64,000 nt of DNA from Bacteroidaceae bacterium. Lineage in GTDB: Bacteria > Bacteroidota > Bacteroidia > Bacteroidales > Bacteroidaceae. The stretch is from NCBI GenBank assembly GCA_017445925.1, contig JAFSRW010000057.1, positions 1-64,000 on the forward strand. Reading direction: 5' to 3'. The position numbers were made by a program, and so were the translations under genes. Positions 5,210-54,816 of the stretch are shown piece by piece; position 1 is the stretch's first letter, and each line of letters starts with the position of its first letter. The notes under the pieces were generated by a model. It made no database searches and had not been told where the DNA came from. It saw nothing but the letters and a program-made list of their open reading frames with translations.

Positions 5210-5944
5210 TTATTTCTTATGATGTATAAGATATACAATGTATGCCAAGCGGAGTTCTTCTTCGCTGTACACATCGCCATATTCGCTGATGACGTTCTCC
5301 ATGCTGAACTTCTTCATGCTGGCCATATAATCTACCAGTTCCTGTACGCATTCCTCACCCAGTACCTCGTTAGTGAAATACGTGATGTCCACATTCAGTC
5401 CCTGGCGGATTAGTTTTTCCAACTCATCCAACACCTCGTCGAACGATATGCTTTCGCTTTCGGCAAAGTCGTCCAGGGCAATCTTCCTGTCAATGGCATG
5501 AATCAGTTTTATCTGCTGCTTTGTTTTGGCAGAAGCTTTCTGTTCAGGATTATCAACTTCGGTGTTAGGAATTTGTACAATCAAGTCTTCCAGATCTTCC
5601 AATCCGGTAAGGTTCTCGTCTGTAGCCTCCTCTTCATCATCAATCATGAAGGTTGTTGGTTTTTTTGCAAACTTCTTTCCTTCTTTTGATGGTGCTAGTT
5701 TATTGCTCTTGGCTGGTTTAAGTTTCAGATATCCGCGTTCAAATGCCTTATCTATAACAGTCATCCAATAGTCTTCGTCATGAGCATCTCCTATGCCGTA
5801 TGTCTCGTTGTCATACAAGCCCAGTTCCTCTATTTCCCGACTTTCTTTTCCTGCCAGGTAATCGATGAGAATTTGGCGTGGGACTGATTGTCCTATTTCC
5901 AGTAGAGCCTTTATGATTTTTACAAGTGATTCTTTTGCATCCAT
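5210..5944 (-). CDS. Stand-alone RQC/HTH-like protein resembling the C-terminus of Bacteroidales RecQ
   Basis: 244 residues with no helicase motor. Residues ~1-75 resemble the winged-helix RQC domain of RecQ, including a YGIGDAHDEDYW stretch like the YGiGkdksekwW segment of RQC and then the FERGYLKL wing. Residues ~85-105 (PSKEGKKFAKKPTTFMI) match the post-RQC linker. Residues ~145-244 resemble the RecQ helix-turn-helix tail (IKLIHAIDRKIALDDFAESESISFDEVLDELEKLI cut short here, then YSEEELRLAYIVYL). A region at ~105-135 is acidic and probably flexible. Function is unknown; DNA binding is inferred. It may be a RecQ partner or regulator, or a remnant of a split RecQ. The start ATG 5944-5942 is supported by a promoter at 5972-6002. 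Confidence 0.65.
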   Translation of the reverse strand: MDAKESLVKIIKALLEIGQSVPRQILIDYLAGKESREIEELGLYDNETYGIGDAHDEDYWMTVIDKAFERGYLKLKPAKSNKLAPSKEGKKFAKKPTTFMIDDEEEATDENLTGLEDLEDLIVQIPNTEVDNPEQKASAKTKQQIKLIHAIDRKIALDDFAESESISFDEVLDELEKLIRQGLNVDITYFTNEVLGEECVQELVDYMASMKKFSMENVISEYGDVYSEEELRLAYIVYLIHHKK

Positions 5945-6028: not shown

Positions 6029-6877
6029 TTATTCCAAGAACTTCTGCACAAGTTTTTCTGTCCTGTCCCAAAGCTCTTGCATTTGCTTATGGTGGACGTA
6101 TTTATCGCCTAATTTTACAATCTTGTTTGAACGGCAGAATGTGCCCGTCTGACCTTCCTTATCTGCGTCGAACATCAGATGAATGGCCGTATCTGCTCCT
6201 TGGCGGGGAGTACGGATAAGGGGACGGAAGAAGAGGTCGGCAATGGGGTCGAGCAATTTATGCTGCAGGTGGATGATTTTTGTGTTCACCACACCTGGGT
6301 CGGCGGCATTTACGGTAATACCCTGTCCTTTTATACGCTTTGCCAGATCTAAAGAGAAAAGGGTGAAAGCCAGTTTGGAGTTACTGTAAACCAGGATTCG
6401 CTGCCAGAAGCCTTTCCTTCCTCTGGTGAAGAATTCTGGGAACTTCAGTTTGCCTAAGAAATAGGAGCAAGAAGACATGTTGACAATTCTGCTTCCCTTT
6501 CCCATTAAGGGAACCAGTAGTCGGGTCAGCAGATAGGGCCCTACATAGTTTACGGCAACGGTACGTTCCAAACCATCTACTGTGGTGTGGAGCCCAGTCT
6601 CCAGGGTCCCTGCATTGTTCATCAGCACATCTACGTAGCCGAACTTTTCTTTTATCTGGTCTGCAAAATCGCGAACGCTCTGCAAGTTGGATAAATCCAA
6701 GGGGATGATTTCAACATCCGTTAGGCCGGTTTCTTCTATCATCTGCTGGCGTCGGGGTTCCGACCGACTGGGACAATAGCAGGCCATAACAGTATGGTAG
6801 CCTTGCAACAAAGCTTCCTTTGCCTCCTCATAGCCCATACCTCCGTTGGCACCTGTTATAATAGCAACTTTTTTCAT
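6029..6877 (-). CDS. Short-chain dehydrogenase/reductase, candidate hydroxysteroid dehydrogenase
   Basis: 282-residue Rossmann-fold oxidoreductase. Visible motifs are the cofactor loop TGANGGMGYE (residues ~8-17), NNAG (~91), the catalytic Ser region VNMSSCS, the YSNSKLA catalytic Tyr/Lys pair and the PG turn DPGVVNTKI. The sequence style is nearest the retinol-dehydrogenase-like SDRs. The start chosen is ATG 6877-6875 (MKKVAIITGANGG). An upstream in-frame start would add 26 residues lacking family character and would run deeper into the preceding gene. The ATG overlaps that gene's TGA by 4 bp, so the two are probably translationally coupled. In context with the 5-alpha-reductase and flavin reductase it may be a 3-beta-hydroxysteroid dehydrogenase. 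That substrate is inference. Confidence 0.85.
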   Translation of the reverse strand: MKKVAIITGANGGMGYEEAKEALLQGYHTVMACYCPSRSEPRRQQMIEETGLTDVEIIPLDLSNLQSVRDFADQIKEKFGYVDVLMNNAGTLETGLHTTVDGLERTVAVNYVGPYLLTRLLVPLMGKGSRIVNMSSCSYFLGKLKFPEFFTRGRKGFWQRILVYSNSKLAFTLFSLDLAKRIKGQGITVNAADPGVVNTKIIHLQHKLLDPIADLFFRPLIRTPRQGADTAIHLMFDADKEGQTGTFCRSNKIVKLGDKYVHHKQMQELWDRTEKLVQKFLE

Positions 6878-8118
6878 GCGTTCTGTTCTTTTTCTATTCT
6901 TTCGATTTCCTTGACTATCTTTTCTGGGAGTGCCTCTTCCATGTGCTGGTGACAAGCCATCTCCAAGGTGTACATACGGCCGATGCAGTAGTTACTATGT
7001 TTACAGCCGCAGCGGTGGTGAGGATCTTCCTTCAGCTTATTCACAAAATCGGGCTCGTTAAGCAGGCTTCGTGCCATCTGAACAGCCTCGAAACCATGAC
7101 CCAGCACCTCATTAATCTTATCGCCTGCAACCAGTCCGCCTACATAAATGAACTTCATGTCGGGCAGCGCCTCGCGGAACTTCAGCGCATCCTCCAGGAA
7201 GTAAGCCTCCTCATATTTGACAGGCTTAATCATGGTCTTACGGACGAGGGGTTTGCAGCAGCCGATACTGTATTTGAGCAAGGGGTCAGTCATGTAGTGT
7301 GTCAGGGTTGTAAGGGGTAGCTCGCCACGCATCACATACATTGGTGTGGCGCTTACCAAACCTCCGCTCAGCACGATACCATGTACGCCCAGTTCCTGAA
7401 GACGACGGGCAATGGGGATGCTGTGTTCTTCCAGCGAGATGCCGTTCTTCAGTCCGTCGCGCATATTCATCTTGCACACAACAGCCATATCGTCCTTGGC
7501 AGCCTTCATCACCTCTTCTATAATCATGCTCATGAAGCGCATACGGTTCTCCAGGGATCCTCCGAACTCGTCTTTTCTGTGATTGAAGTAGGGGTTCAGG
7601 AACTGATCAATCAGATATCCGTGTCCACAATGAATCTCCACTTCGTCGAAGCCAGCTTCACGAGCCAGATTGACGGCATCGCCGAATTTCTTTGCCATTG
7701 CCACCAGTTCGTCCTGACGAAGGCCACGAACGATGGTGGGGCTATACAGATTAAAGCCTGTACTGGCACTGACAGGCATACAGCCGCAGATGCTCTTGTG
7801 GCTCATGTTACCGCAATGTCCTAACTGGATGCCGGCTGCGGCTCCCTCGCGGTGAATGCCGTCGGTCAGATTGCGGAGGCCTGGCACTATTTCCTGACGC
7901 ATAATCAACTGGCGGTCAAAGCTCAGTCCGCTTTCTGTAACAGCAGCGTATGCTACGGTGGTCATTCCTACACCGCCCTTGGCTACACTGGTATGATAGT
8001 CGTACAGCATCTGACTGGGTTTGTGCCCAGGACACATACTCTCAAAAGCTGCGCTTCTGATGGTTCTGTTTCTTAAGGTTAGAGGACCAATATGAGCCTC
8101 TTCAAAGATTTTGTTCAT
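6874..8118 (-). CDS. Old-yellow-enzyme family NADH:flavin oxidoreductase (single-domain)
   Basis: 414-residue FMN TIM barrel that would reduce activated C=C bonds. Visible signatures are GPLTLRNRTIRSA at the N-terminus, AAGIQLGHCGN, the substrate/FMN segment EIHCGHGYLIDQFLNPYFNHRKDE (shortened here to its start EIHCGHGYLIDQFL), GGSLENRMRF and FIYVGGL...GFEAVQMARSLL. It lacks the ~230-residue NAD(P)/FAD part found in BaiCD and 2,4-dienoyl-CoA reductases. A C-terminal cysteine set (Cys 370, 372, 378 and 389) sits where those enzymes carry a 4Fe-4S cluster, but the spacing is not canonical. It lies between a steroid 5-alpha-reductase homologue and an SDR. Its likely role is a delta-4-3-ketosteroid or bile-acid 5-beta-type reductase, by context only. 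Confidence 0.85.
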   Translation of the reverse strand: MNKIFEEAHIGPLTLRNRTIRSAAFESMCPGHKPSQMLYDYHTSVAKGGVGMTTVAYAAVTESGLSFDRQLIMRQEIVPGLRNLTDGIHREGAAAGIQLGHCGNMSHKSICGCMPVSASTGFNLYSPTIVRGLRQDELVAMAKKFGDAVNLAREAGFDEVEIHCGHGYLIDQFLNPYFNHRKDEFGGSLENRMRFMSMIIEEVMKAAKDDMAVVCKMNMRDGLKNGISLEEHSIPIARRLQELGVHGIVLSGGLVSATPMYVMRGELPLTTLTHYMTDPLLKYSIGCCKPLVRKTMIKPVKYEEAYFLEDALKFREALPDMKFIYVGGLVAGDKINEVLGHGFEAVQMARSLLNEPDFVNKLKEDPHHRCGCKHSNYCIGRMYTLEMACHQHMEEALPEKIVKEIERIEKEQNA

Positions 8119-8134
8119 AATATCTTATCTTTTG

Positions 8135-8211
8135 GACCCTCCCGACCTCCCCCTTTGGGTGAGGGGATTATCGTTAGAGCACTCCCCCAAGGGGGAGCGG
8201 GGAGGGGGCTG
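8135..8211. repeat. Palindromic G/C-rich REP-like element between 5-alpha-reductase and flavin reductase genes
   Basis: Two arms, CCTCCCCCTTTGGGTGAGGGG and CTCCCCCAAGGGGGAGCGGGGAGG, are separated by ATTATCGTTAGAG. Each arm is itself a small palindrome. A closely related copy is at 12300-12346. It interrupts an otherwise tightly spaced gene set without encoding anything, and it may form an RNA hairpin between the two genes. Confidence 0.75.
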
Positions 8212-8214
8212 TTA

Positions 8215-8985
8215 TTAATATATAAACGGTATAATTCTCTTTCTGTTTCCTACGGCAGTGTTGCCAAACTCATTGCGGTATTTCTTATGGATAGCATGGG
8301 CACGAGGTACCAGATTAGCAGCTGTCCACCAAACGAATACCCAAGCAGCAGGTGAGCCTGCTATGATGGCAAAGCCTGTCCACTCTAACAATTCGCCCAA
8401 GTAGTTTCCGCTGGTGACAAGGTGGTACATACCGCCCTTGGGCAGATAGTGTTTGGTATCACCGGGCTTGCGCAAGTTGCGGATTACGTGGTCGGAATGC
8501 AGGTTGATGCCCATTCCTATAAAGAAGACAATGAATCCTATTATGGCTGTTCCATGTGTAAAGTAGCTCCAGCCCTCCTGGTATGCCTCTTGTGGGAACC
8601 AGTAGAGTCCGCCTCCCTGCATGATGCCGTTGATAACATTGAATGTTACACCAGAAAGCATGATGGTAACAGGCATTTTGCTTTCACCTGACATCAGGAA
8701 GGGGAAGATAAAACTGCGCTGGAAGTAATGCAATAGGAACAGTCCTAACAGCACTATCTGGGGAGCAACTGTAGAGCCTCCGCTTGTGAGCCAGATAATA
8801 ACCATAGTCAGGAAGGCAGGAGTTTCCATCAGCACCCACCCTACCTTATTATTGATACTCAAACCCCATTCCTTGGTGCGGAATTGTCCATAGCCGGCAG
8901 TAATAAAATACAGGCTAATGAAGACAATCAATCCTAAAACGGTCATACCTGCCAGCAGGTAGTTAAAAACTTCTTCTGTTATCAT
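8215..8985 (-). CDS. Steroid 5-alpha-reductase (SRD5A) homologue, integral membrane
   Basis: 256-residue membrane protein with about six to seven hydrophobic segments. Its C-terminal half matches the eukaryotic SRD5A family closely: FPFLMSGE, NVINGIMQGGGLYW, HSDHVIRNLRKPGDTKHYLP, GGMYHLVTSGNYLGELLEW and the final RKRIIPFIY. The NADPH- and substrate-site residues of that family (HSD...RKPGD, N-x3-E-x2-EW, RAH..H) are all present. It would reduce the delta-4 double bond of a 3-oxo-steroid or bile acid to the 5-alpha product. The gene starts 18 bp after the end of metY, suggesting one transcript. The downstream flavin reductase and SDR complete a set reported for bile-acid processing in gut Bacteroidales. 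Enzyme class is well supported; the natural substrate is not known. Confidence 0.88.
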   Translation of the reverse strand: MITEEVFNYLLAGMTVLGLIVFISLYFITAGYGQFRTKEWGLSINNKVGWVLMETPAFLTMVIIWLTSGGSTVAPQIVLLGLFLLHYFQRSFIFPFLMSGESKMPVTIMLSGVTFNVINGIMQGGGLYWFPQEAYQEGWSYFTHGTAIIGFIVFFIGMGINLHSDHVIRNLRKPGDTKHYLPKGGMYHLVTSGNYLGELLEWTGFAIIAGSPAAWVFVWWTAANLVPRAHAIHKKYRNEFGNTAVGNRKRIIPFIY

Positions 8986-12299: not shown

Positions 12300-12346
12300 C
12301 CCCCTTCCTACCTCCCCCTTTGGGTGAGGAGATTATCGTTTGGGGA
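12300..12346. repeat. REP-like palindromic element between pepP and the gamma-CA-like gene
   Basis: CTACCTCCCCCTTTGGGTGAGG followed by AGATTATCGTTTGGGG. It is nearly the same as the left arm of the element at 8135-8211, including the ATTATCGTT joint, so the two are copies of one dispersed sequence. Confidence 0.75.
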
Positions 12347-33127: not shown

Positions 33128-35344
33128 CTATCGAACCAATTTATAATCCAGCTGTTTGCGGTAAAGATCAGCACGGGCCACTTGAATCTTAACGGTATCG
33201 CCCAAGTTGTAGCAATGGTGTCGGCTTCTTCCGCGTAGGCGATAGTTCTTCTCGTCGAACTCGTAGTAGTCATCGTCGAGGTCGCGCAGCGGAATCATTC
33301 CTTCGCACTTGTTCTCGTTAACCTCTACGTAAATGCCGAATTCTGTAACACCGCTGATGGTTCCTTCGAAGGTCTCACCCATGTGGTCGCTCATAAATTC
33401 CACCTGCTTGTACTTGATGCTGGCGCGTTCTGCCTGGGCAGCCGTCTGTTCCATATCGCTGCAATGCTCGCAAAGTTCTTCGTATTTGTCCTGATTTGCA
33501 GATCTGCCTCCTTGAGCATATTTGGTTAGGAGACGATGAACCATTAGGTCGGGATAACGACGGATGGGCGAAGTGAAATGCGTGTAGTAGTCGAACGCCA
33601 AACCGTAATGCCCGACATTGTGGGTGCTGTACTTGGCTTTCATCATGGCGCGAAGGGTAATCATTTCTATCATGTTCTGTTCCTTCTTGCCTTTTACCTC
33701 GGTAAGCATCCGGTTCAGGTTTTTGCTCATTTCACCTTTATTGCCACGTGTTTTAAGCTTATATCCGAACTTACCTACGAAATCCGACAGGTTCATCAGC
33801 TTGGCAGGGTCGGGCGACTCATGAATACGATAAGGTAATACCTTGGGTTTCTGGTTCTTGGGAACCTTTCCGATGCTTTCTGCTACTGTGCGGTTGGCCA
33901 GCAGCATAAATTCCTCTACCAGTTTGTTGGCATCCTTGGCCACCTTGAAGTAAACGCTGGTGGGTTTGCCTTTTTCGTCTATCTCGAAGCGTACTTCGCA
34001 GCGGTCAAAATCTACGGCTCCGCCTGCAAAGCGTTTCTTACGCAACTCCTTAGCTAAGCGGTTCAGGATGATTAGTTCGTCGGCAAAGTTTTCTGCAGGA
34101 GCCCCCTCCTCGCTCCCCCTTTGGGGGAGTGCCCAATCTCCAGGTGCTTTATAATCCTCCTCGCTTGCCTCGTGGTGATTCTCCAACACCTCTTGAACCT
34201 CCTCGTAGGTAAAGCGGCGGTTACTCTTAATAACGGTGTGGGCTAAATGCCAGTCTTTCACCTCGGCCTTCTCGTTCATCTTAAAGATAACGCTGTAGGT
34301 AAGTTTCTCCTCGTCGGGGCGCAGTGAGCAGACATAGTTGCAAAGATGCTCGGGCAACATGGGAACGGTGCGGTCAACCAGGTAAACGCTGGTAGAACGT
34401 TTCTGCGCTTCCTTATCTATAATAGATCCTTCTGTAACATAGTGGCTGACGTCGGCAATATGAACGCCAATCTCCCAAAGGCCCGCCTTTAACTTACGAA
34501 TGCTCAGTGCATCGTCAAAGTCCTTGGCATCGCGCGGGTCGATGGTAAAGGTCATGACATCTCGCATATCTTCGCGGCGAGCAATCTCTTCCTTAGTTAT
34601 GCCAGGCTTCAACTTAGCGGCAGCCTTCTCAACAGCAGCAGGATATACGTACGGAAGACCGTATTCGGCAAGAATGGCATGCATTTCGGCATTATTCTCG
34701 CCTGTCTTGCCTAAAATGTCTACAACCTTTCCAATAGGATTCTTGGCATTGTCAGGCCATTCCACAATTTTTACAATGGCCTTGTCGCCCGTCTGTCCTT
34801 TCTTGAGATTGGTTTTAGGAATAAAGATATCATTGGCCAGCGTACGATCCTCAGTCAGAAGATACGCATAGTTCTTGCTTACCTGCAAGGTTCCTACAAA
34901 CTGTTTCTCGCTTCGTTTCAGAATTTCTGTTACAGAGGCTTCACGTACGTGATGCTTTCGACGTGCCAACATGGTTACCTGCACCTTGTCGCCATCCATA
35001 GCATGCATACTGTTACGTTCGGCTACCAGAACAGGCTCTCCACCGTCTTCAGGCTCAAAAGTGTTCTTGCCGTTTGCCTTTCGGTGAAAGATTCCCACCA
35101 TCACCTGAGTGGGGTTGTTGAGCGTGTAGCAGAAACGGGGATGTTCCTTAATATAATCATCCATCAGCAGCATTTCCAACACATCCATCAGCAGCATTTT
35201 AGCAGGATGCGTATTCAGGTGAAGCTCCCGATACAGGGTTTTCAGTTCATAGACCTGGGTTGGATTCTCTTCGAACAGGGTGATTACCATCTGTTCCAGA
35301 TTTTTCTTCTTGAGGCGTCCGCCTCCGCTTTTCTTCTTTCCCAT
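33128..35344 (-). CDS. rnr: Ribonuclease R (RNB-family 3'-5' exoribonuclease)
   Basis: 738 residues. N-terminal cold-shock-like OB domains (~75-215) precede the RNB catalytic domain (~255-590), whose metal-binding Asp residues are in TIDPRDAKDFDDALSIRK. A C-terminal S1 domain (~640-735) includes FEGTISGVTEFGIYVEVNEN. It degrades structured RNA processively in the cytoplasm. An Arg/Lys-rich start (MGKKKSGGGRLKKKN) fits RNA binding. Residues ~400-416 (APGDWALPQRGSEEGAPAENF region) are not typical of the family and are encoded by a palindromic G/C-rich element at 34096-34145, in frame within a loop of the RNB domain. Its promoter is at 35373-35403. Confidence 0.93.
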   Translation of the reverse strand: MGKKKSGGGRLKKKNLEQMVITLFEENPTQVYELKTLYRELHLNTHPAKMLLMDVLEMLLMDDYIKEHPRFCYTLNNPTQVMVGIFHRKANGKNTFEPEDGGEPVLVAERNSMHAMDGDKVQVTMLARRKHHVREASVTEILKRSEKQFVGTLQVSKNYAYLLTEDRTLANDIFIPKTNLKKGQTGDKAIVKIVEWPDNAKNPIGKVVDILGKTGENNAEMHAILAEYGLPYVYPAAVEKAAAKLKPGITKEEIARREDMRDVMTFTIDPRDAKDFDDALSIRKLKAGLWEIGVHIADVSHYVTEGSIIDKEAQKRSTSVYLVDRTVPMLPEHLCNYVCSLRPDEEKLTYSVIFKMNEKAEVKDWHLAHTVIKSNRRFTYEEVQEVLENHHEASEEDYKAPGDWALPQRGSEEGAPAENFADELIILNRLAKELRKKRFAGGAVDFDRCEVRFEIDEKGKPTSVYFKVAKDANKLVEEFMLLANRTVAESIGKVPKNQKPKVLPYRIHESPDPAKLMNLSDFVGKFGYKLKTRGNKGEMSKNLNRMLTEVKGKKEQNMIEMITLRAMMKAKYSTHNVGHYGLAFDYYTHFTSPIRRYPDLMVHRLLTKYAQGGRSANQDKYEELCEHCSDMEQTAAQAERASIKYKQVEFMSDHMGETFEGTISGVTEFGIYVEVNENKCEGMIPLRDLDDDYYEFDEKNYRLRGRSRHHCYNLGDTVKIQVARADLYRKQLDYKLVR
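34096..34145. repeat. REP-like palindromic element inserted in frame in the RNase R gene
   Basis: The core is CTCGCTCCCCCTTTGGGGGAG plus AGCCCCCTCC, like the right arm of the element at 8135-8211 and the elements near 48446 and 54690. It adds about 15 codons and no stop. Confidence 0.75.
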
Positions 35345-48445: not shown

Positions 48446-48483
48446 AAAGCCTCCCCCGCCCTCCCCCAAGAGGGAGGGGGCTT
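48446..48483. terminator. REP-like palindrome between convergent GH36 and priA genes
   Basis: AAGCCTCCCCC...GGGAGGGGGCTT forms a G/C-rich hairpin directly after the GH36 stop and overlapping the priA stop (48482-48484). The sequence belongs to the dispersed G/C-rich element family (see 8135-8211), here placed where a bidirectional terminator would be. Confidence 0.65.
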
Positions 48484-54686: not shown

Positions 54687-54816
54687 TGGCCTCTCTCCAC
54701 CGCTCTCCCCCAAGAGGGAGGGTTCCAAGGTTCTGAGGACTTTTTTATTTGTTTTACATTATTATTTCTTCGTCTTTAAGTTCCCCATTCGCGACGGTGT
54801 TCGGGTTGGGGGTGAG
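54687..54816. repeat. Degraded REP-like elements between gldK and gldL
   Basis: Positions 54690-54720 hold CTCCACCGCTCTCCCCCAAGAGGGAGGG. Positions 54783-54816 hold CGGTGTTCGGGTTGGGGGTGAGGC, half of the LTPNPSP-type element. About 60 bp of T-rich sequence lies between. They separate two genes that are tightly spaced in many relatives. Confidence 0.65.

What the first reader, a model, noticed from the sequence alone, without database searches (positions are those of the whole stretch)
6029..8985. Candidate steroid or bile-acid reduction operon in a Prevotella-like genome
A strikingly close SRD5A-type 5-alpha-reductase is followed by a single-domain old-yellow-enzyme reductase and an SDR, the last two overlapping by 4 bp. 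Reported gut Bacteroidales clusters for 5-alpha/5-beta reduction and 3-beta-hydroxysteroid formation combine the same three enzyme families. Here the set directly follows metY (18-bp gap).
Basis: partly seen in the sequence, partly recalled or inferred. Interest (0 to 1): 0.82.

Follow-up and report, generated by a model that had tools for sequence, protein, structure and literature searches.

The report
Steroid-reduction gene trio, rumen bacterium
This uncultured bacterium, apparently from the ruminant stomach, carries the same three-gene set that intestinal Bacteroides-type bacteria are thought to use to flatten and reduce steroids; the set is already known, but its presence in stomach compartments that bile does not reach raises the question of which steroid it works on.

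Summary
On the minus strand lie a 256-aa SRD5A-type 5-alpha-reductase (8215-8985), a 414-aa single-domain old yellow enzyme (OYE; 6874-8118) and a 282-aa SDR (6029-6877). It is not chance: 68 of 80 named relatives carry all three in this order, and across 139 genomes of the window's genus they come and go together (62 have all three; Fisher p 2.7e-26 or lower, not corrected for kinship). The 5AR keeps the catalytic Glu-Tyr pair and groups with gut Bacteroides/Parabacteroides enzymes. A review describes the same set around the Parabacteroides merdae 5AR, whose disruption prevents alloLCA derivatives. So this is a new member of a known kind. Corrections: metY is an incidental neighbour (3 of 80); identity to human SRD5A2 is 34%; the OYE is not BaiCD but a distinct family with a helical insert, no FAD domain and a shifted cysteine motif. 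Several named genus members come from rumen, omasum or reticulum, upstream of bile entry, and bile-salt-hydrolase-family genes are rare in the genus (7 of 139). Plant steroids are therefore a real alternative to bile acids. No activity was measured.

The parts
8215..8985 (-). SRD5A-type steroid 5-alpha-reductase (5AR), probable integral membrane protein, 256 aa
   Evidence: PF02544 2.8e-37; PDB 7c83 8.9e-50 and 7bw1 1e-39; E54, Y87, R90, N161, D165, R172, N194, E198, R228, Y236 match human E57, Y91, R94, N160, D164, R171, N193, E197, R227, Y235
8119..8214 (-). 96-bp spacer largely filled by a GC-rich inverted-repeat element (repetitive in the window; probably not specific to the cluster)
   Evidence: 6 matches in window against 0.17 expected, two of them here; fold z -2.48
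6874..8118 (-). single-domain old-yellow-enzyme-family flavoprotein, 414 aa; putative Delta4-3-ketosteroid 5-beta-reductase/dehydrogenase
   Evidence: PF00724 6.1e-50; NCBIfam BaiCD 176.6 bits over residues 2-258 only, cut-off 825; model pLDDT 91.1
7186..7323 (-). helical insert of about 40 residues (within residues 266-311) in the OYE barrel, absent from the genome's other, two-domain OYE
   Evidence: alignment; helices 269-275, 279-287, 289-295 in the model
6952..7011 (-). C-terminal cysteine motif C370-x-C372-x5-C378-x10-C389, candidate Fe-S site with shifted spacing
   Evidence: C372, C378, C389 in 111 of 111 rows, C370 in 97 of 111; C372, C378, C389 align with three of the four cysteines of the two-domain OYE
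6029..6877 (-). SDR-family oxidoreductase, 282 aa, putative 3-beta-hydroxysteroid dehydrogenase
   Evidence: PF00106 5.7e-32; N110, S136, Y164, K168 in 68 of 68 rows; best solved relatives are 3rd5 and other SDRs including protochlorophyllide reductases

Best explanation
A three-gene module that reduces ring A of 3-oxo-Delta4 steroids. The membrane 5AR takes hydride from NADPH and reduces the Delta4 double bond to the flat 5-alpha 3-ketone. The SDR then reduces the 3-ketone, probably to the 3-beta alcohol. The OYE handles the 5-beta side, either opening 5-beta 3-ketones to the Delta4-3-ketone or reducing that ketone to 5-beta, so that together the three enzymes can turn bent 5-beta steroids into flat 3-beta,5-alpha ones. 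Shown here: the families, intact core catalytic residues, gene order and co-inheritance. Inferred: substrates, direction of the OYE, stereochemistry of the SDR, and the natural substrate in this host.
For: Families and core residues. 68 of 80 named loci have all three genes in the same order and strand. In 139 genomes of the genus 5AR, OYE and SDR occur in 67, 70 and 67, all three in 62; 5AR with OYE 63 of 67, Fisher p 2.7e-26. Seven genomes have 5AR on a different contig from the OYE, so retention seems not to be physical linkage alone. The 5AR lies in a starred (98) clade of 27 rows with Bacteroides, Mediterranea, Phocaeicola and Parabacteroides sp. An277 in a quick tree. Review PMC10382948, one passage read: P. 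merdae 5AR disruption prevented alloLCA derivatives, and the 5AR gene is clustered with a predicted 3-beta-HSDH and a BaiCD/BaiH-like NADH:flavin oxidoreductase. PMC11193847, passages read: sheep rumen fluid given bile acids gained alloCA, 3-beta-CA, isoHDCA and DHLCA, products named as distinct from the added acids.
Against: No activity was measured here, and I saw none reported for this genus. The SDR is nearest by sequence to 3rd5 and protochlorophyllide-type SDRs, not to a solved 3-beta-HSDH. The OYE scores far under the BaiCD cut-off and lacks the FAD/NAD domain, so its electron source is unknown. P. merdae's own genes were not retrieved; the comparison rests on a review passage and on Parabacteroides sp. 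An277. Four genus genomes keep 5AR alone, and 7 and 5 have OYE or SDR without 5AR, although the assemblies are incomplete; the Fisher tests ignore kinship. Flanks of the 5AR were looked at for only two of the seven split genomes (G107 as L103, G099 as L030). More distant Bacteroidales 5ARs that keep the same core residues lack the partners, so those residues alone do not prove membership of the gut system. 14 of 32 positions compared with human SRD5A2 differ, some of them in the steroid pocket.
Confidence: 0.8

Rival explanations
1. Bile-acid isomerisation specifically: the module's natural substrates are unconjugated secondary bile acids (3-oxo-LCA, 3-oxo-Delta4-LCA, DCA analogues), as reported for gut Bacteroidota.
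For: Review passage on the P. merdae cluster; grouping with gut 5ARs and no fixed residue difference from them at 32 compared positions; rumen fluid given bile acids gained alloCA and 3-beta-CA; a row from horse faeces (L098) lies in the same starred group of 15 rows as the genus rows.
Against: Five named genus members come from sheep rumen, roe deer omasum or yak reticulum, upstream of bile entry. The bile-salt-hydrolase family PF02275 is found in 7 of 139 genus genomes, 3 of them with 5AR, no association (p = 1), and not in the window genome, which is 84% complete.
Confidence: 0.35
2. Plant-steroid processing in the forestomach: the module works on sapogenins, phytosterol ketones or other dietary steroids, making flat 3-beta,5-alpha products such as tigogenin and 5-beta products such as smilagenone and smilagenin.
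For: Forestomach origin of five named genus members. PMC10385484, passages read: oxidation and reduction of sapogenins in sheep gives epismilagenin, smilagenone, smilagenin and tigogenin. Tigogenin being 5-alpha,3-beta and smilagenin 5-beta,3-beta (recalled) fits 5AR plus SDR and OYE plus SDR.
Against: Circumstantial. No residue at the 32 compared positions separates the window's group from the intestinal rows in a fixed way; position 111 is S in 5 of 12 and M in 7 of 12, against M in 21 of 21. A step that oxidises and isomerises Delta5 3-beta-ols would also be needed and was not sought. Habitat was not scored for the 139 genomes, and the gene set is also in many intestinal genomes.
Confidence: 0.35
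3. A non-steroid lipid module: the SRD5A fold, OYE and SDR reduce an endogenous enone such as a polyprenoid or carotenoid-like lipid.
For: Wide spread in the order (105 of 393 genomes at E 1e-3, 15 of them only weak hits); no obvious transporter or regulator among the immediate neighbours examined; SRD5A-fold enzymes elsewhere act on polyprenols and enoyl-CoA (family knowledge; an enoyl-CoA-reductase chain matches at 4.4e-6).
Against: The SRD5A-type solved proteins are far better matches than the enoyl-CoA-reductase type (8.9e-50 and 1e-39 against 4.4e-6); E57, Y91, W53, F118 and L224 of the human enzyme are kept, though S31, R114, F219 and F223 are not; P. merdae 5AR disruption affects bile-acid products; presence in about half of one genus argues against an essential lipid step.
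Confidence: 0.1

Closest known systems
Bacteroidota 5AR / flavin oxidoreductase (5BR) / 3-beta-HSDH cluster reported for Parabacteroides merdae (described in PMC10382948)
   Same: Same three families, same linkage; homologues in the same order in Bacteroides, Mediterranea, Phocaeicola and Parabacteroides sp. An277
   Different: Apparently a ruminant-forestomach genus; 51-55% 5AR identity to five named Bacteroides, Phocaeicola and Parabacteroides rows compared; substrate not tested
Human SRD5A2 (7bw1) and the bacterial SRD5A of PDB 7c83
   Same: Nearly whole-length homologue; catalytic Glu/Tyr and NADPH-core residues kept
   Different: 34-35% identity; 14 of 32 compared positions differ from SRD5A2, among them Y98 to F and Y178 to H
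BaiCD / BaiH and related 5-beta-reductases of Firmicutes
   Same: OYE barrel; BaiCD is the best NCBIfam profile
   Different: No FAD/NAD domain, 176.6 bits against a cut-off of 825, helical insert, shifted cysteine motif
PRK06197-type and protochlorophyllide-reductase-like SDRs
   Same: Among the closest sequence groups to the SDR
   Different: Linked with 5AR and OYE in most relatives seen; function inferred from context

Membership tests
SRD5A family (PF02544) | Score over the Pfam cut-off and near whole-length match to solved members | tested here: met
   128.4 bits against 22.6; 7c83 over residues 6-255 of the query
SRD5A family (PF02544) | Catalytic Glu57/Tyr91 and NADPH-contact residues (roles recalled) | tested here: met
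   Ten core residues kept, Y98 and Y178 changed; E54, Y87, R90 and E198 in 122 of 122 rows
Bacteroidota 5AR-5BR-3betaHSDH cluster | OYE-family flavin oxidoreductase and SDR next to a 5AR | tested here: met
   68 of 80 named relatives the same
Bacteroidota 5AR-5BR-3betaHSDH cluster | 5AR groups with the partner-linked gut enzymes rather than with the distant stand-alone ones | tested here: met
   Starred (98) branch for 50 rows apart from 10 distant stand-alone ones; window in a starred (98) clade of 27; quick tree, 5 of the 50 rows without partners plus 3 without OYE
Bacteroidota 5AR-5BR-3betaHSDH cluster | Orthology to the experimentally tested P. merdae, O. laneus and B. dorei genes | tested here: inconclusive
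   Those species were not among the 80 loci kept of 575; Parabacteroides sp. An277 stands in
Bacteroidota 5AR-5BR-3betaHSDH cluster | Converts 3-oxo-Delta4-LCA to 3-oxoalloLCA and isoalloLCA | not testable with these tools
   Needs enzyme or strain assays
BaiCD | NCBIfam equivalog score of 825 or more | tested here: not met
   176.6 bits
BaiCD | C-terminal FAD/NAD(P) domain | tested here: not met
   Protein ends at 414 aa; profile matched 2-258 of 642; no second Pfam domain
BaiCD / dienoyl-CoA-reductase-type Fe-S OYE | Four-cysteine Fe-S motif | tested here: inconclusive
   Three of four cysteines align, the second is missing, C370 may replace it
3-beta-HSDH | SDR catalytic Asn-Ser-Tyr-Lys and Rossmann-type fold | tested here: met
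   In 68 of 68 rows; model pLDDT 90.8 with alternating strands and helices
3-beta-HSDH | Similarity to characterised gut 3-beta-HSDHs | not tested
   Their sequences were not fetched
3-beta-HSDH | 3-beta stereospecificity on steroids | not testable with these tools
   Not readable from sequence

The most novel reading that the evidence does not exclude
In an uncultured ruminant-forestomach genus the isoallo-steroid cluster has been turned to dietary plant steroids: it supplies ruminal enzymes that reduce sapogenin-type 3-oxo-Delta4 ketones to 5-alpha (tigogenin-like) and 5-beta (smilagenin-like) products, using an unusual single-domain, possibly Fe-S-bearing old yellow enzyme that needs an external electron donor.
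Probability: 0.25. Interest if true: 0.65.

Novelty: new member of a known kind. Interest (0 to 1): 0.4.

Why it matters
Gut bacterial 5-alpha-reductase genes are associated with androgen ratios in women (PMC12589954, passages), and the P. merdae gene is needed for alloLCA derivatives (PMC10382948, passage). Finding the complete, co-inherited module in a genus with forestomach members suggests that the trait is not tied to the bile-bathed gut, and gives candidate enzymes for ruminal steroid and sapogenin reduction. The terms 5AR and 5BR do not occur in the main text of the rumen bile-acid survey PMC11193847 (its supplementary list of 82 orthologues was not seen). The conserved OYE family, with its insert, missing FAD domain and shifted cysteine motif, is the least understood part and is directly testable.

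Tried and rejected
Rejected: a functional link to metY (3 of 80 named relatives have it). Rejected: naming the OYE BaiCD. Rejected: pairing of 5AR with the bile-salt-hydrolase family in the genus (5AR in 3 of 7 genomes with it and 64 of 132 without, p = 1). Tried without result: residues that separate the window's group from intestinal 5ARs (the 12-row group included L098 from horse faeces, which I did not match to the genus). Papers not held: Sato 2021 and Li 2021. Structure comparison of the OYE and SDR models could not be run, so the models are used for secondary structure only. The first tree grouping counted L103, L131 and L136 as linked although they lack an adjacent OYE; with corrected labels the tree needs 6 changes, 0 of 500 shuffles as low. 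A search round another genome, G396, found a 5AR hit in 42 of 100 and is not used further.

Print search: no report of this cluster in rumen or Prevotella-type bacteria was seen in the listings of searches. Several listings were partial: 20 of 76 (15), 20 of 42 (36), 15 of 375 (37), 12 of 48 (49), 10 of 33 (73). Passages, not whole papers, were read. PMC6069880 reports the gene in the chicken Bacteroidetes isolates except two Odoribacter and a Parabacteroides (passage).
Full report
What is there. The minus strand of 6029-8985 holds three open genes in one direction. First, a 256-aa protein of the SRD5A family (PF02544, 128.4 bits), whose best solved relatives are the bacterial 7c83 (8.9e-50) and human SRD5A2 7bw1 (1e-39). 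Second, after a 96-bp spacer, a 414-aa old-yellow-enzyme-family protein (OYE). Third, overlapping it by four bases, a 282-aa SDR.

The 5AR. Identity is 35.0% to 7c83 and 34.4% to SRD5A2, so it is a clear but not a striking relative. Of 32 positions compared with SRD5A2, 18 are identical. Among them are ten that I recall as catalytic or cofactor contacts (E57, Y91, R94, N160, D164, R171, N193, E197, R227, Y235). Fourteen differ, among them S31, Y98 (F here), R105, R114, Y178 (H here), F219 and F223, some of which line the steroid pocket by recall. In 122 aligned rows E54, Y87, R90 and E198 are invariant. In a quick maximum-likelihood tree of 62 rows the window protein sits in a starred (98) clade of 27 rows with Bacteroides, Mediterranea, Phocaeicola, Prevotella and Parabacteroides sp. 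An277. Other Bacteroides (xylanisolvens, fragilis, oleiciplenus, timonensis) fall outside the 27 but inside a starred (98) group of 50 rows, which lies apart from 10 distant stand-alone Bacteroidales 5ARs of unknown habitat. The outgroup branches are long, the root is unsure, and the tool warns that stars of a quick tree deserve less trust when long rows are present.

The partners. Of 80 named relatives (575 found, the best 80 kept, ranked against a Bacteroidaceae sequence), 68 have 5AR, OYE and SDR in that order on one strand. Of these 68, L081, L114 and L128 have a gap of 0.8 to 2.3 kb before the SDR, L085, L123 and L132 have an SDR cut by the end of the contig, and L135 has an OYE that matches in two pieces. 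The 12 misses: L077 and L125 lie at contig ends; L082, L083 and L086 have no SDR in the stretch; L103, L105, L117 and L126 have 5AR alone; L131, L136 and L137 have 5AR and SDR without OYE. Of 17 further, more distant loci (35-50% identity), 15 have neither partner within the stretch fetched, one has the OYE and one has both. With labels for an adjacent OYE (42 with, 18 without) the tree needs 6 changes, against 15.6 on average in shuffles, 0 of 500 as low.

Co-inheritance. In 139 genomes of the window's genus a 5AR hit is found in 68 (67 without one weak partial hit, G125), an OYE hit at E 1e-60 in 70 and an SDR hit at E 1e-40 in 67. All three occur in 62. The 2x2 tables (both, first only, second only, neither) are 63/4/7/65 (5AR, OYE), 62/5/5/67 (5AR, SDR) and 66/4/1/68 (OYE, SDR), Fisher p from 2.7e-26 to 1.6e-33. 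Related species count separately, so these p-values overstate independence. In 56 genomes the 5AR and OYE matches are 6-157 bp apart on one contig (distances by match ends, stop codon included); in 7 they lie on different contigs, yet both are kept. For two of these seven the fetched flanks of the 5AR hold no OYE (L103 for G107, 6 kb; L030 for G099, 1.5 kb); for the other five I did not check the contig ends.

The OYE. BaiCD is the best NCBIfam profile, but only residues 2-258 match and the score is 176.6 against a cut-off of 825. There is no FAD/NAD domain. Relative to the genome's other OYE, a 650-aa two-domain protein, it has a helical insert of about 40 residues and a cysteine motif C-x-C-x5-C-x10-C in which three of the other protein's four cysteines align, the second is missing and C370 lies two residues before C372. 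C372, C378 and C389 are in 111 of 111 rows, C370 in 97. The AlphaFold2 model is confident (pLDDT 91.1, pTM 0.91). My reading is an FMN ene-reductase that may carry an Fe-S cluster and takes electrons from a separate donor; this is inference.

The SDR. It has the Asn, Ser, Tyr and Lys of SDR enzymes in 68 of 68 rows and a confident model (pLDDT 90.8). Its closest solved relatives are 3rd5 and other SDRs including protochlorophyllide reductases. That it makes a 3-beta alcohol rests on context alone.

Literature. PMC10382948 (one passage read) reports work by Honda and colleagues: disruption of the P. [quoted passage not shown] PMC6069880 (passages) finds the 5AR gene in the chicken Bacteroidetes isolates except two Odoribacter and a Parabacteroides. 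PMC12589954 (passages) associates gut 5AR genes with the dihydrotestosterone ratio in women. The original papers are not held. The kind of cluster is therefore already described.

Habitat. Of these 13, five titles name the forestomach (sheep rumen L089 and L090, roe deer omasum L095 and L099, yak reticulum L108), two are RUG isolates (rumen genomes by recall of the label), and six titles do not state the site. The closest named relative, 91% in 5AR, is from sheep rumen. L098 from horse faeces, a hindgut sample, lies in the same starred group of 15 rows as the genus rows, so the type is not confined to the forestomach. Bile enters after the forestomach (general knowledge). PF02275, the bile-salt-hydrolase family, occurs in 7 of 139 genus genomes and not in the window genome (84% complete), with no association with 5AR. 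Yet sheep rumen fluid given bile acids gained alloCA, 3-beta-CA, isoHDCA and DHLCA (PMC11193847, passages), and sapogenin metabolism in sheep is said to yield epismilagenin, smilagenone, smilagenin and tigogenin (PMC10385484, passages). Both fit the module. The substrate is open.

Verdict. Observation confirmed. It is a new member of a known kind, with a forestomach setting and an under-described OYE as its points of interest.

Noticed in passing
window 5210-5944, minus strand: Next gene downstream of the SDR encodes a stand-alone RQC domain (57.3 bits) plus RecQ-1-like HTH domain without a helicase part; it follows the cluster in the three closest named relatives too.
   Followed up: partly
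window 8147-8198, 12312-12329, 34113-34130, 48460-48477, 54704-54721: A GC-rich inverted-repeat element (CTCCCCCTTTGGGTGAGG-like), 6 matches against 0.17 expected; two matches in opposite orientation lie in the 5AR-OYE spacer.
   Followed up: partly
L162 3113-5065 (G000 contig 21): The only other PF00724 match in the genome is a 650-aa two-domain enzyme scoring about equally with mycofactocin-OYE and BaiCD profiles, below both cut-offs.
   Followed up: partly
L135 about 6780-7986: The OYE in the Bacteroides fragilis S82 record matches in two separate pieces, as if the gene were interrupted there or misassembled.
   Followed up: no
L131, L136, L137: Bacteroidales loci with 5AR directly followed by the SDR and no OYE between.
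   Followed up: no
L152-L155 (genomes G139, G258): Two genomes of one family (f2) of the order carry two 5AR paralogues each, none with OYE or SDR beside it in the stretch fetched; three other f2 genomes had one match.
   Followed up: partly
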